Of a stretch of DNA of 64,000 nt, positions 489 through 27,355 are shown piece by piece. The first letter of the stretch is position 1. Each line of letters opens with the position of its first letter. The stretch spans positions 62,001 through 126,000 of the forward strand of contig NZ_JACGLS010000002.1 in the NCBI RefSeq assembly GCF_014062345.1, written 5' to 3'. Both the position numbers and the translations under genes were made by a program. Origin of the DNA: Tenacibaculum pelagium. Its GTDB lineage: Bacteria; Bacteroidota; Bacteroidia; Flavobacteriales; Flavobacteriaceae. The notes beneath the pieces were generated by a model that was given only the letters and a program-made list of their open reading frames with translations, searched no databases and had not been told where the DNA came from.

Positions 489-941
489 ATGAACTTACAA
501 GCATTAAAAAACAACATAGATAACATCGCAGAAAATAATTCTACCAAAGAAGAAAAACTTCAACAAATATGTGATTATTTAGCTTCTGAAATTTCATATT
601 ATGATTGGGTAGGATTTTACTTTAAAAACGGTGATAAAGACGAATTAAAATTAGCACAATTTAACGGTGAACCAACAGATCATACAATCATTCCTTTCGG
701 AAAAGGAATTTGTGGTCAAGTAGCTGTTAGTAATAAGAATTTTGTTGTGCAAGATGTTAGCGAACAAGACAATTATATTTCTTGTGGATGGAAGGTTAAA
801 TCAGAGATTGTAATTCCAATTTTTGTTAACGAAGAAAATATCGGGCAAATAGATATTGACTCTCATACAGTTAACCCATTTACAGCTGATGACGAAGCTT
901 TATTAGAGTACACTTGTAAAAAAGTAGCTGATTTTATATAA
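489..941 (+). CDS. GAF domain protein, probable free methionine-(R)-sulfoxide reductase
   Basis: A 150-residue single GAF domain. The segment GKGICGQVAV...VVQDVSEQDNYISCGWKVKSEIVIPI follows the fRMsr family (E. coli MsrC/YebR type), including two of its redox cysteines, Cys75 in GICG and Cys99 in ISCG. The family reduces free methionine-R-sulfoxide in the cytosol using thioredoxin. The third family cysteine seen in E. coli is absent, as in many homologues. It is monocistronic, with an ATG start 108 nt from the divergent HYC_CC_PP gene. Substrate is inferred from the family; a plain ligand-binding GAF protein is the alternative. Confidence 0.75.
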   Translation: MNLQALKNNIDNIAENNSTKEEKLQQICDYLASEISYYDWVGFYFKNGDKDELKLAQFNGEPTDHTIIPFGKGICGQVAVSNKNFVVQDVSEQDNYISCGWKVKSEIVIPIFVNEENIGQIDIDSHTVNPFTADDEALLEYTCKKVADFI

Positions 942-955
942 TTTTATTGTAATCG

Positions 956-987
956 TTTGATTGTTAGGATTTTTTTTCTTTAATTTG
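956..987 (+). promoter_or_regulatory. Candidate promoter of the 41-aa gene
   Basis: TTTG at 956-959 is followed by 20 nt and then TTAATTTG at 980-987, one mismatch from the Bacteroidota -7 consensus TAnnTTTG. It lies about 38 nt before the ATG at 1025 and would give the small gene its own transcript. Confidence 0.4.
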
Positions 988-1024
988 AAAAGATTTATTA
1001 ACCCTTGCTTAATTCCCCTATATT

Positions 1025-1150
1025 ATGAGCAACAAAGAATACCCTACTTACGCTGCGTTAGGCAATCCTAATGCACGTGCAAATTCTCAACAATCTTTTT
1101 TCGAAAAATTTACAATGTGGTTTCGTGATTTCTTAGAAAACGCGGAATAA
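1025..1150 (+). CDS. 41-aa microprotein with an FtsA-like C-terminal amphipathic helix
   Basis: ATG at 1025, stop TAA at 1148-1150. The N-terminal half (MSNKEYPTYAALGNPNARAN) is polar and probably unstructured. The C-terminal half, SFFEKFTMWFRDFLENAE, is an amphipathic helix with Phe, Trp and Leu on one face. It matches the last 18 residues of FtsA from this same window (SIFEKFTEKFKEFLDNAE) at 12 of 18 positions, ending in the same NAE before the stop. In FtsA this tail is the membrane-targeting sequence. The gene stands alone between a candidate promoter and a perfect terminator. I know of no named family. Membrane binding and a link to division are inference; the resemblance is seen directly. 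Confidence 0.72.
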   Translation: MSNKEYPTYAALGNPNARANSQQSFFEKFTMWFRDFLENAE

Positions 1151-1170: not shown

Positions 1171-1208
1171 AAAACACCACCAAAAACATATAGTTTTGGT
1201 GGTGTTTT
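1171..1208 (+). terminator. Terminator after the 41-aa gene
   Basis: A perfect 15-bp stem, AAAACACCACCAAAA at 1171-1185 pairing with 1194-1208, and an 8-nt loop; it ends in a T run. It separates the microprotein gene from purH. Confidence 0.85.
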
Positions 1209-1288: not shown

Positions 1289-2815
1289 ATGAACAATCAA
1301 AAAACTATTAAATCTGCACTGATTTCGGTCTTTCATAAAGACGGTTTAGAACCAGTTGTAAAAAAACTGAACGAGCTTGGAGTTACTATTTACTCTACAG
1401 GAGGAACAGAAAAATTTATTAAAGATTTAGGTATCGATGTAGTACCTGTAGAAGATATTACTTCTTACCCTTCAATATTAGGGGGTCGAGTAAAAACTTT
1501 ACATCCTAAAGTTTTCGGAGGAATTTTAAACAGACAAAATCATGAAGGTGATATTGCTGAAATGCAAGAATATAACATTCCGCAATTAGATGTAGTAATT
1601 GTAGATTTATACCCTTTTGAAAAAACAGTAGCTTCAAATGCACCAGAACAAGATATTATAGAGAAGATTGATATCGGAGGAATTTCTTTAATTCGTGCTG
1701 CTGCTAAAAATTTTAAAGATACTGTGATTGTCTCTTCTATGGATCAATACGAAGCCTTTTTAAATTTAATTTCTGAAAATAACGGAAGTACATCTATCAG
1801 TGATAGAAAAAAGTTTGCTGCAAAGGCTTTCAATATTTCTTCTCATTACGATACAGCTATTTTTAATTACTTTAACGAAGACGAAGTTGCCTATAAAGCA
1901 AGTGAAACAACTTCTAAGACTTTAAGATATGGAGAAAATCCGCATCAAAAAGGGTATTTCTTTGGTGATTTAGATGCTATGTTTGATAAATTACATGGTA
2001 AAGAATTAAGCTATAATAATTTATTAGATGTTGATGCTGCTGTAAACTTAATGAATGAGTTTAAAGGAGAAACTCCAACGTTTGCTATTTTAAAACACAA
2101 CAACGCTTGTGGATTTGCTCAAAGAGAAACAATTCATCAAGCTTATGTAGATGCTTTAGCTGGTGACCCAGTTTCTGCTTTTGGTGGGATTTTAATTTCA
2201 AACACAAAAATAGACAAAGCCACTGCAGAAGAAATCCATAAACTATTCTGTGAAGTTGTAATTGCCCCTTCTTATGATGATGATGCTTTAGAGGTTTTAA
2301 AAGGAAAGAAAAACAGAGTTTTATTAATTCAAAAAGAAGTAGAATTACCTAAGCAAACTGTTCGTACAGCTTTAAACGGTTTATTAATTCAAGATAAAGA
2401 TTATATTACTGATAAATTAGAAGACCTTTCATACCCAACAAACAATAAACCTAACGAAAGTGAGTTAGATGATTTATTATTTGCTTCTAAGTTGTGTAAA
2501 AACACAAAATCTAATACTATTATCTTAGTAAAAAACAAGCAATTATTAGCTGGTGGAACAGGACAAACAAGTAGAGTTGATGCTTTAAAACAAGCAATCG
2601 ACAAAGCAAATAGTTTTAATTTTGATTTAAACGGAGCTGTTATGGCGAGTGATGCATTTTTTCCGTTTCCAGATTGTGTAGAAATTGCAAATAATGCTGG
2701 GGTAAAAAGTGTAATTCAACCAGGTGGTTCTATTAAAGATCAATTAAGTATTGATTATTGTAATGACCATGATGTTTCAATGGTTTTTACAGGAACTAGA
2801 CATTTTAAACATTAA
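1289..2815 (+). CDS. purH: Bifunctional AICAR transformylase / IMP cyclohydrolase
   Basis: This enzyme does the last two steps of de novo purine synthesis: formylation of AICAR with 10-formyl-THF, then ring closure to IMP. The N-terminal MGS-like cyclohydrolase domain (about 8-150) has STGGTEKFIKDLGI and GGRVKTLHPKVFGGIL. The C-terminal transformylase domain has RYGENPHQKG, the catalytic KHNNACG and the family's end VFTGTRHFKH. Length 508 aa is normal. It has its own promoter with an A/C-rich leader; mreB follows 80 nt later with its own promoter-like element. No PurR-type operator was recognised. Confidence 0.97.
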   Translation: MNNQKTIKSALISVFHKDGLEPVVKKLNELGVTIYSTGGTEKFIKDLGIDVVPVEDITSYPSILGGRVKTLHPKVFGGILNRQNHEGDIAEMQEYNIPQLDVVIVDLYPFEKTVASNAPEQDIIEKIDIGGISLIRAAAKNFKDTVIVSSMDQYEAFLNLISENNGSTSISDRKKFAAKAFNISSHYDTAIFNYFNEDEVAYKASETTSKTLRYGENPHQKGYFFGDLDAMFDKLHGKELSYNNLLDVDAAVNLMNEFKGETPTFAILKHNNACGFAQRETIHQAYVDALAGDPVSAFGGILISNTKIDKATAEEIHKLFCEVVIAPSYDDDALEVLKGKKNRVLLIQKEVELPKQTVRTALNGLLIQDKDYITDKLEDLSYPTNNKPNESELDDLLFASKLCKNTKSNTIILVKNKQLLAGGTGQTSRVDALKQAIDKANSFNFDLNGAVMASDAFFPFPDCVEIANNAGVKSVIQPGGSIKDQLSIDYCNDHDVSMVFTGTRHFKH

Positions 2816-25278: not shown

Positions 25279-26625
25279 CTATTCAGCGTTATCTAAAAAC
25301 TCTTTGAATTTTTCAGTGAATTTTTCAAAAATTGATTTAGACTTCTCTTTCGCTTTATACTCTTTTTCTACCACTGGCTCTTCTAAAATCTCTTCTTCTA
25401 AAGCATCATTTATTGGAGCAGTTACTTCAGGTTGATTTTCAACAACTTCTTCCTCTACTTCAATATCTTTTCTTAACCCTTCCATTAATAATCCAACTGC
25501 TGTTGCATATGACGGACTAGATAAAACGCTATCTGAATCTCCAGCTAAATGCTCGTTAGGATACCCAATACGCGCATCCATTCCAGTAATATATTCAACT
25601 AATTGACGTAAGTGTTGTAACTGAGATCCTCCTCCTGTTAAAACAATACCAGCTATTAGTTTTCCTTTTTGAGTTTCGTGTCCATAGTTTTTAATTTCCA
25701 AGTACACGTGCTCAATAATTTCTTGAACTCTAGCATGAATTATTTTTGATAAATTTTTAAGCGTAATCTCTTTCGGCTCTCTACCTCTTAATCCAGGAAT
25801 TGAAACTATTTCTGTTTCTTTATTCTCCCCAGGCCATGCGCTACCAAACTTAATTTTTAATAATTCTGCTTGCTTTTCAATAATCGAACAACCTTCTTTA
25901 ATATCCTCAGTAATTACATTTCCTCCGAAAGGGATTACTGCTGTATGACGGATTATACCGTCTTTAAAAATGGCCAAATCTGTTGTTCCACCACCTATAT
26001 CAATCAAAGCAACTCCAGCTTCTTTCTCTTCTTGGCTTAATACAGCAGATGCAGATGCTAAAGGCTCTAATGTTATATCAGACAAATTTAAACCAGCACT
26101 CTTAACACATCTTCCAATATTTCTAATAGAAGACACTTGACCTACTACAACATGAAAGTTTGCTTCTAAGCGCCCTCCATACATTCCGATAGGTTCTTTT
26201 ATTTCAGGCTGACTATCAACTTTAAATTCTTGTGGCAATACATGTATAATTTCTTCACCAGGAAGCATTACTAATTTATGTACTTGACCAACTAAATTTT
26301 CTATATCAAACTCATCAATTACTTCATCAGACTTTTCACGAGTTATATAATCGCTATGATGCAAACTACGTATATGCTGACCTGCAATACCAACAACAAC
26401 ATTTTCAATCTTTTGTCCAGAAACACTTTGTGCTTCATCAACAGCTTGTTGTATCGACTGTATTGTTTGAGTTATATTATTTACCACACCTCTTTTTACA
26501 CCTAAACTTTTGGCTTTACCAATACCTAAAACTTCAATTTTACCGTATTCGTTTTTACGCCCAATCATGGCAACAATCTTGGTTGTACCAATATCTAAAC
26601 CAACTGCGATTTTATTGTTTTCCAT
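25279..26625 (-). CDS. ftsA: Cell division actin-like protein FtsA
   Basis: FtsA tethers FtsZ to the membrane. Actin-fold motifs: VGLDIGTTKIVAMIGR, ALIDIGGGTTDLAIF and GIVLTGGGSQLQHL. An acidic linker (about 390-425) leads to the C-terminal amphipathic helix KSIFEKFTEKFKEFLDNAE, the membrane-targeting sequence. The ATG at 26625 is preferred to 26649 because MENNKIAVGLDIGTT is the usual start. It overlaps ftsQ by 14 nt. Its last 18 residues are closely matched by the 41-aa protein at 1025-1150. Confidence 0.96.
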   Translation of the reverse strand: MENNKIAVGLDIGTTKIVAMIGRKNEYGKIEVLGIGKAKSLGVKRGVVNNITQTIQSIQQAVDEAQSVSGQKIENVVVGIAGQHIRSLHHSDYITREKSDEVIDEFDIENLVGQVHKLVMLPGEEIIHVLPQEFKVDSQPEIKEPIGMYGGRLEANFHVVVGQVSSIRNIGRCVKSAGLNLSDITLEPLASASAVLSQEEKEAGVALIDIGGGTTDLAIFKDGIIRHTAVIPFGGNVITEDIKEGCSIIEKQAELLKIKFGSAWPGENKETEIVSIPGLRGREPKEITLKNLSKIIHARVQEIIEHVYLEIKNYGHETQKGKLIAGIVLTGGGSQLQHLRQLVEYITGMDARIGYPNEHLAGDSDSVLSSPSYATAVGLLMEGLRKDIEVEEEVVENQPEVTAPINDALEEEILEEPVVEKEYKAKEKSKSIFEKFTEKFKEFLDNAE

Positions 26626-27355
26626 CTTGATTTTGTTTTGTGCACACAACTTGGTTGTGGTATTTTACAGTTATTGTCTTATAATTATTTATAGTTTTAT
26701 CAGCTAATGCCTTATTGTAAAAGGCTATTAACTTTTTAAACTTAACGTCAACGTTTATAAACTCACCAAAAACTATTTTATAGTCACCGCTACGAACGGT
26801 AAAAACATATTCATTTTTAGCATTTTTTTGAATTGCAATAATTTCTTTTACAAGAAAATCGTTGCTTTCAATTGCTTTTATTAAAGTCGTTAATTCTTTG
26901 ATTTCTTCAGAATCCCCTACTCCTGAAACTAACGGTACTCTTGCTGAAAAATTTGATGATAATGGAATTTTAACTCCATACTTATCAACATAAAAAGATT
27001 TTTCTTTATCAACAATACGAGCTATCGGAGTCCTTTGTTTTATCACTGTTTTCAACACCCCTTCAATGGTTAAAAACACGTCTGCTTTTTCAACATATGG
27101 ATTCGCCGATACATTAGCCTCTAGAAAGTGTAAATCTAACACTCTTTTTGGTTGGTTTTTAACAAATTCTTGATTTTGTATTAACAATTTATCAACCATA
27201 CTGTGTGTCAAAAAGTTATTGTCTCCAGCTTTAAATTCAACCACTGGTTTTAATACCTTTTTAGCTCCATTTCTATTGGATGAAAAACCGTATAACACTG
27301 CCAAAAACACTAGCAACACTAAAAAAGACAAATATGTAGCCACTTTTTTAATCAT
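26612..27355 (-). CDS. ftsQ: Cell division protein FtsQ/DivIB
   Basis: 247-aa bitopic protein: membrane helix (about 5-25), then a POTRA-like region (HFLEANVSANPYVEKADVFLTIEGVLKTVIKQRTPIARI) and a beta domain (DKYGVKIPLSSNFSARVPLVSG). It links FtsA/FtsZ to the periplasmic synthases FtsW and FtsI. It lies between murC (8-nt overlap) and ftsA, the standard place. Confidence 0.92.
   Translation of the reverse strand: MIKKVATYLSFLVLLVFLAVLYGFSSNRNGAKKVLKPVVEFKAGDNNFLTHSMVDKLLIQNQEFVKNQPKRVLDLHFLEANVSANPYVEKADVFLTIEGVLKTVIKQRTPIARIVDKEKSFYVDKYGVKIPLSSNFSARVPLVSGVGDSEEIKELTTLIKAIESNDFLVKEIIAIQKNAKNEYVFTVRSGDYKIVFGEFINVDVKFKKLIAFYNKALADKTINNYKTITVKYHNQVVCTKQNQDGKQ

What the first reader, a model, noticed from the sequence alone, without database searches (positions are those of the whole stretch)
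1025..1150. 41-aa microprotein that copies the FtsA membrane-targeting tail
The C-terminal 18 residues SFFEKFTMWFRDFLENAE match the last 18 of FtsA (SIFEKFTEKFKEFLDNAE, 25279-25335 minus) at 12 positions; K/R, E/D, D/E and I/F changes are conservative, and both end NAE-stop. The gene is 24 kb from ftsA, has a candidate promoter and its own perfect terminator, and no other domain. It could compete with FtsA for the membrane or for a partner, or mark a site for a division protein. I know no named family for it.
Basis: partly seen in the sequence, partly recalled or inferred. Interest (0 to 1): 0.85.

Follow-up and report, generated by a model that had tools for sequence, protein, structure and literature searches.

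The report
Microprotein that copies FtsA's anchor
Marine bacteria of the Tenacibaculum/Polaribacter group carry a conserved protein of about 40 residues that is little more than a copy of the tail with which the cell-division protein FtsA holds on to the membrane, so it may be a small regulator of cell division, though no experiment has tested that.

Summary
The ORF at 1025-1150 is a real gene. It lies between a GAF-domain gene and purH in all 54 loci checked, and 89 of 146 genomes of the window's genus show it in an unbroken small frame (my count). It is under purifying selection, strongest in the tail (pooled dN/dS 0.201 overall, 0.089 for the last 18 codons). A profile of microproteins alone finds the FtsA C-terminus as the main other match in Flavobacteriaceae (27 of the 28 other-genus loci fetched there are FtsA). 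The two tails match beyond a shared amphipathic pattern (0 of 200,000 class-preserving permutations as high), best with FtsA of the own genus. Constant differences are a Trp at -10 and a more hydrophobic helix. No Pfam, NCBIfam or PDB relative was found. By parsimony the gene is old in the clade and lost repeatedly: an accessory gene. Most likely it is a peripheral-membrane peptide acting at the site or partner that FtsA's tail uses; membrane binding and any division role are inferred, not shown. A new variant of a known kind (division-linked amphipathic microproteins).

The parts
1025..1150 (+). microprotein gene (mp1), 41 codons plus stop
   Evidence: orthologues at the same place in 54 of 54 loci; pooled dN/dS 0.201
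1094..1147 (+). codons of the FtsA-like tail SFFEKFTMWFRDFLENAE, predicted helix
   Evidence: 12 of 18 identical to the FtsA tail; helix 15-39 in a single-sequence AlphaFold model, block means of pLDDT 93 and 96 over residues 21-40; pooled dN/dS 0.089
998..1024 (+). conserved C-rich leader (TTAACCC...AATTCCCCTATATT) directly before the start codon
   Evidence: CCC[CT] within 22 nt before the ATG in 50 of 54 loci, 0 of 54 before purH (the motif was chosen after looking)
961..987 (+). promoter-like TTG ... TAATTTG (Bacteroidetes type, consensus recalled)
   Evidence: read from sequence; similar in 7 relatives printed; not tested
1171..1208 (+). intrinsic terminator, 15-pair stem
489..941 (+). 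upstream neighbour, GAF-domain protein
   Evidence: PF13185 E 6e-11
1289..2815 (+). downstream neighbour purH (name recalled), followed by an mreB-like gene (name recalled)
   Evidence: ORFs; order conserved
25279..26649 (-). ftsA ORF; the copied tail plus stop is 25279-25335
   Evidence: TIGR01174, translation

Best explanation
A conserved microprotein, old in the Tenacibaculum/Polaribacter clade, that consists of a variable, probably flexible N-terminal half and an amphipathic C-terminal helix copying the membrane-anchoring tail of FtsA. Proposed mechanism: when made, the helix lies on the inner face of the cytoplasmic membrane (its Trp at -10 and higher hydrophobicity suggest binding at least as strong as FtsA's own tail), and its FtsA-type ending lets it occupy the site or partner that FtsA's tail uses, so that it tunes how much FtsA and Z-ring is tethered. 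Shown: gene, conservation, selection on the protein, likeness to the FtsA tail beyond amphipathicity. Inferred from sequence: translation, helix, membrane binding. Inferred without direct evidence: action on FtsA or division.
For: Synteny in 54 of 54 loci. Purifying selection. A microprotein-only profile finds FtsA tails; 27 of the 28 other-genus loci fetched are FtsA C-termini, the other a relic of the microprotein itself. Similarity beyond amphipathicity and in C-terminal register: family 0 of 200,000 and window pair 1 of 200,000 class-preserving shuffles as high; offset 0 scores 45.61, all other offsets 6.84 or less. Against FtsA tails chosen by an FtsA model the mean score is 48.7 and 47.2 in the own genus and 36.6 in two genomes of another genus of the family; other families average 22.6, best 35.7. 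Negative control: a profile of similar length for the neighbouring small ORF mp2 finds no other protein consistently in 20 genomes. Predicted helix 15-39; hydrophobic moment median 0.58 against 0.65 for FtsA tails, hydrophobicity 0.52 against 0.24. [quoted passage not shown]
Against: No experiment. Missing in many genomes of the genus, and the FtsA tails of ten such genomes look unchanged (L021, L022, L024-L031; three of these genomes are under 80% complete). Net charge of the microprotein tail is -1 to -4, and most members lack the basic stretch that precedes the tail in FtsA, so membrane affinity is uncertain; FtsA's own tail is also -1 to -3. The ending is not strict: FLENAE in 27 of 54 loci, FLETAE in 13, others FIENAE, FLDNAE, FLENGE, FLDSAE, FLESFE, and distant members end FLDNDE, FLEKAE, FIEKAE, FLENSE or LIEKAE. 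For a genus outside its own, the likeness to FtsA (36.6) barely exceeds the best other-family tail (35.7). The gene is not linked to ftsA; its nearest cell-shape neighbour is an mreB-like gene behind purH.
Confidence: 0.4

Rival explanations
1. A membrane-surface amphipathic microprotein (curvature or stress sensor, or helper of another membrane protein) with no link to FtsA; the likeness is convergence on the same kind of membrane helix.
For: Both tails are strongly amphipathic. A Trp-Phe-x-acidic pattern is common in FtsA tails elsewhere in the phylum (W in 24 of the 30 loci fetched out of 61 genomes, read by eye), so such helices recur. Repeated loss fits an accessory role. The family-specific part of the likeness weakens outside the own genus.
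Against: Polar residues also match: 0 of 200,000 class-preserving permutations reach the observed score, and F at -6 and E at -1 are invariant in both sets of that call (one distant member, L293, has L at -6).
Confidence: 0.36
2. The shared ending is a recognition tag (for a protease, chaperone or adaptor) and the microprotein is a decoy or co-substrate that sets FtsA turnover.
For: Both end at the same residue, and the C-terminus is the most conserved part. In 20 genomes only these two proteins carry the tail strongly.
Against: A general tag should occur on more proteins; none seen. Members vary at the last residues.
Confidence: 0.15
3. The locus acts as an RNA (small RNA or structured leader) and the ORF is incidental.
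For: The window's transcript with terminator folds well (z -5.69). Leader plus coding region alone gives z of -3 or lower in 4 of 30 loci, the window's among them. The leader is conserved.
Against: dN/dS well below 1. Over 30 loci the coding region has mean z -0.72, leader plus coding region -1.03. No Rfam family reaches its gathering score.
Confidence: 0.05

Closest known systems
FtsA C-terminal membrane-targeting helix (Pichoff and Lutkenhaus 2005, seen only as cited in passages of PMC6126333 and PMC5832921)
   Same: 18-residue C-terminal amphipathic helix, same register to the stop, same S-[FL]-[FL]-[ED]-K-[FL]-T ... F-L-[DE]-N-A-E pattern as Flavobacteriaceae FtsA
   Different: no actin-like domain and no acidic linker; Trp at -10 where the FtsA tails have R, G, K, S or N; helix more hydrophobic; usually no basic stretch before it
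MciZ of Bacillus subtilis (4.0 kDa inhibitor of FtsZ assembly; passages of PMC6126333)
   Same: a division protein of similar size (a division role is only proposed here)
   Different: MciZ caps FtsZ filaments; no sequence comparison was made; here the likeness is to FtsA's anchor
SpoVM of Bacillus subtilis (recalled: 26-residue amphipathic helix on curved membranes)
   Same: tiny protein that is mostly one amphipathic helix
   Different: not known to me to end like FtsA; no sequence comparison made
microProteins of eukaryotes: small single-domain relatives of larger proteins that interfere with their complexes (start of the abstract of PMC6003976, seen in the listing)
   Same: logic of a small stand-alone copy of one part of a larger protein
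   Different: bacterial; the shared part is a tail, not a domain; common descent not shown

Membership tests
FtsA family | actin-like ATPase core (TIGR01174, PF14450) | tested here: not met
   41 aa, no hit in Pfam or NCBIfam; no FtsA hit for any of 32 members
FtsA family | C-terminal amphipathic membrane-targeting helix, as sequence | tested here: met
   sequence, register and amphipathicity; predicted helix
FtsA family | membrane binding by that helix | not testable with these tools
   needs experiment
FtsA family | common descent of the tail with ftsA | tested here: inconclusive
   39 of 60 nt identical, codon position 3 only 7 of 20; N-terminal PTYAALG/PSYATAVG likeness not significant (median p 0.12)
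division-inhibiting microproteins (MciZ; SidA recalled) | binds or inhibits a divisome protein | not testable with these tools
   needs experiment
SpoVM-type amphipathic microproteins | binds the membrane surface | not testable with these tools
   only predicted
known families of Pfam, NCBIfam, PHROGs | profile match | tested here: not met
   no hit for the window protein; among 32 members only single-member hits at E 0.039-0.086

The most novel reading that the evidence does not exclude
A division-control module of marine Flavobacteriaceae: a stand-alone mimic of FtsA's membrane anchor (mp1), in some relatives followed or replaced by a second conserved basic microprotein (mp2), often behind the same C-rich leader, that adjusts Z-ring tethering by occupying the anchor's target.
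Probability: 0.26. Interest if true: 0.85.

Novelty: new variant of a known kind. Interest (0 to 1): 0.62.

Why it matters
If true, it would be a bacterial microprotein that works by copying the anchor of the essential division protein FtsA, a control point I know of in no other bacterium. It would also point to an unknown reader of the FtsA tail: all 41 FtsA tails read end in exactly FLDNAE (a set chosen by likeness to the microprotein; the four family members picked by an FtsA model end so too), which is more constraint than an amphipathic anchor should need. Even if the division link fails, this is a conserved, unnamed microprotein family with a clear test. My paper searches listed nothing on it; only openly licensed papers were searched, I saw listings and passages of three papers, and the small-protein catalogue paper PMC11364881 names none of the terms Flavobacter, Tenacibaculum, Polaribacter or marine in its main text.

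Tried and rejected
Descent from ftsA with loss of its linker: the N-terminal PTYAALG resembles FtsA's PSYATAVG, but shuffles give median p 0.12 for 34 distinct sequences with P-x-Y-x-x-L and 0.48 for the 11 others; not claimed.

RNA function: rejected as the main role. Start-codon hairpin with a C-rich loop: P(AUG paired) is about 0.93 or more in 12 of 42 distinct leaders, but over all 42 the mean energy is -2.21 against -2.30 for base-shuffled leaders and P 0.64 against 0.54; purH starts -4.18 and 0.47; not claimed.

Phage origin: a viral-contig scan found 21 pattern stretches, none confirmed. Extra copies in G438: one contig end repeats the GAF-mp1-purH stretch inverted, probably an assembly artefact. 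mp2 as a mimic of FtsZ's C-terminal peptide: the window's FtsZ-like ORF (name recalled) ends SFLHDNVD, unlike mp2; dropped by eye. PDB and Rfam scans gave only weak chance hits.

Biases: A1-A3 hold sequences found by likeness to this ORF, so conservation figures lean upward; weak members show looser endings. The FtsA loci were the best hits of microprotein queries, so the family mean of 46.0 leans upward; one search gives the four loci chosen by an FtsA model instead. Profile A3 holds both kinds of tail, so its matches are partly by construction. The 51 microproteins are 45 distinct ones plus six. The 54 loci include some genomes reached twice (45 distinct proteins). Of the 118 other-genus genomes I looked at the 28 whose loci were fetched. 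The tree used 84 rows: 10 near-duplicates or repeats and two repeats of G000 and G020 were left out beforehand, 10 of the 28 other-genus loci were used, and L071 was dropped.

Full report
What is there. The ORF at 1025-1150 encodes MSNKEYPTYAALGNPNARANSQQSFFEKFTMWFRDFLENAE. It sits between a GAF-domain gene (489-941) and purH (1289-2815; name recalled), with an mreB-like gene next. A 15-pair terminator follows at 1171-1208. No Pfam, NCBIfam or PHROG family matches; when 32 family members are scanned singly, only single-member hits at E 0.039-0.086 appear.

It is a gene. Searches find intact orthologues in the window's genus. The named records are Tenacibaculum or Polaribacter in 36 of 37 loci, the other a 'Bacteroidia bacterium'. 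Of 146 genomes of the genus (own included), I count in the listing 89 with a match at E 2.7e-7 or better in a small frame without a stop. One more (G401, L136) has a frame broken near its start, and two diverged copies (L131, L139) were recognised at the expected place. In all 54 loci examined (17, 37) the order is GAF, microprotein, purH. Pooled over 13 pairs, dN/dS is 0.201 (95% 0.144-0.276); 0.330 for the N-terminal part and 0.089 (0.044-0.147) for the last 18 codons. In 28 loci from other genera of the family none has it; in 14 of the 28 GAF and purH are direct neighbours with a spacer of 73-248 nt. One genome of another genus (G116, L071) holds a degenerate copy before purH.

History. On a purH tree of 84 loci (quick method, SH-aLRT only) the label 'mp1 present' needs 14 changes, 8 of them forced by starred branches, with carriers on both sides of the genus's first split, whose placing is not strongly supported. 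The simplest reading is one old gain and many losses. Of 30 genomes chosen because the profile had not found the gene, 25 show no copy, 2 only mp2, 2 a diverged copy and 1 a broken one. The gene is therefore dispensable in many species.

The FtsA likeness. In the own genome the only second match is the C-terminus of FtsA (E 0.0155). A profile of 16 microproteins finds a match in 258 of 299 Flavobacteriaceae genomes at E 1 or less (not all are FtsA). Nearly all matches listed there lie in a frame of 430-470 residues. Of the 28 other-genus loci fetched by that call, 27 are FtsA C-termini and one is the relic L071. All 41 FtsA tails read (14 of the genus, 27 others) end FLDNAE. Aligned from the stop, 51 microproteins and 21 distinct FtsA tails agree in kind at 16 of 18 columns (my reading of the table); F at -6 and E at -1 are invariant in both sets, though a distant member found later has L at -6 (L293). 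Permuting columns within hydrophobic and polar classes never reached the observed score (0 of 200,000; window pair alone 1 of 200,000), and no offset other than zero scores high. hhalign of the family against this FtsA gives 89% probability over 23 columns. A profile of the neighbouring small ORF mp2, of similar length, finds mp2 itself strongly in 8 of 20 genomes and no other protein consistently, so short profiles do not automatically find partners in these genomes.

How specific it is. The mean score of 38 distinct microprotein tails is 46.0 against 20 distinct Flavobacteriaceae FtsA tails, most of them chosen by likeness, and 22.6 against 19 distinct tails of other families of the order. 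For tails chosen by an FtsA model the scores are 48.7 (own genome), 47.2 (own genus) and 36.6 twice (another genus of the family); the best of the other families is 35.7. None of 26 other-family loci ends FLDNAE. So the likeness is strongest to FtsA of the own genus and fades outside. Two columns differ constantly: at -10 the microprotein has Trp (48 of 51) where these FtsA tails have R, G, K, S or N, and at -11 it lacks FtsA's usual acidic residue. FtsA tails elsewhere in the phylum do have Trp at the corresponding place (24 of 30 loci fetched, by eye). The microprotein thus combines a Trp common in FtsA anchors elsewhere with the ending of its own family's FtsA.

Physical picture. AlphaFold (single sequence, mean pLDDT 80.7) gives helices over residues 9-13 and 15-39. 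The last 18 residues have a hydrophobic moment of 0.58 (median of 38 distinct tails), each above at least 95.9% of shuffles of its letters, against 0.65 for 19 FtsA tails; mean hydrophobicity is 0.52 against 0.24. A helix on the membrane surface is expected. The negative net charge and the usual lack of a basic stretch speak for caution.

Mechanism. [quoted passage not shown] the latter also says that ATP is thought to free this helix in S. pneumoniae FtsA). A free copy of the helix could compete for lipid surface, dock where FtsA's own tail docks, or titrate a reader of the ending. I favour action at the FtsA-tail target (0.40) narrowly over a membrane peptide without a link to FtsA (0.36). 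The tag reading and the RNA reading are less likely (0.15, 0.05).

A second feature. The start codon is preceded by a conserved C-rich leader: CCC[CT] ending 2-8 nt before the ATG in 50 of 54 loci, 0 of 54 before purH (motif chosen after looking). The fuller form TAATCATTAANYCCC occurs 24 times in 17 of 97 genomes of the genus, against 7 times in 6 genomes for the reversed pattern. By my count 14 of the 24 lie before mp1 or mp2 genes, from which the pattern was drawn, 7 before a tandem array of one 71-residue ORF in G009, and 3 elsewhere. It may be a translational control element; a start-codon hairpin was tested and is not general.

Verdict. The functional claim stays a hypothesis.

Noticed in passing
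L009:1644-1772; also L012, L015, L020, L051, L065, L067, L143, L144, L164, L165, L167, L171, L170: A second conserved small ORF (mp2, 42-45 aa, usually starting MKKQ, motif Y..LV..F[KR]) follows mp1, or stands in its place, before purH in some loci, often with its own CCCCT-like leader; no Pfam family, only one PHROG hit at E 0.22.
   Followed up: partly
window 998-1024; G009 C1:1021428-1024792 (L174, L176-L181): The leader TAATCATTAANYCCC, 5-8 nt before ATG, also precedes a seven-copy tandem array of a 71-residue probable membrane protein in one genome in which mp1 was not found; possibly a shared translational control element.
   Followed up: partly
FtsA C-termini, window 25279-25335 and 41 loci: The FtsA ending FLDNAE is identical in 41 of 41 Flavobacteriaceae loci read (chosen by likeness to mp1) and in 0 of 26 loci of other families of the order; more constraint than an amphipathic anchor should need.
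   Followed up: partly
L071 (G116, another genus): Degenerate mp1 copy upstream of purH, with a stop inside and no ATG at the expected place.
   Followed up: no
L289 (G438 contig end): Inverted duplicate of the GAF-mp1-purH stretch at a contig end, probably an assembly artefact.
   Followed up: yes
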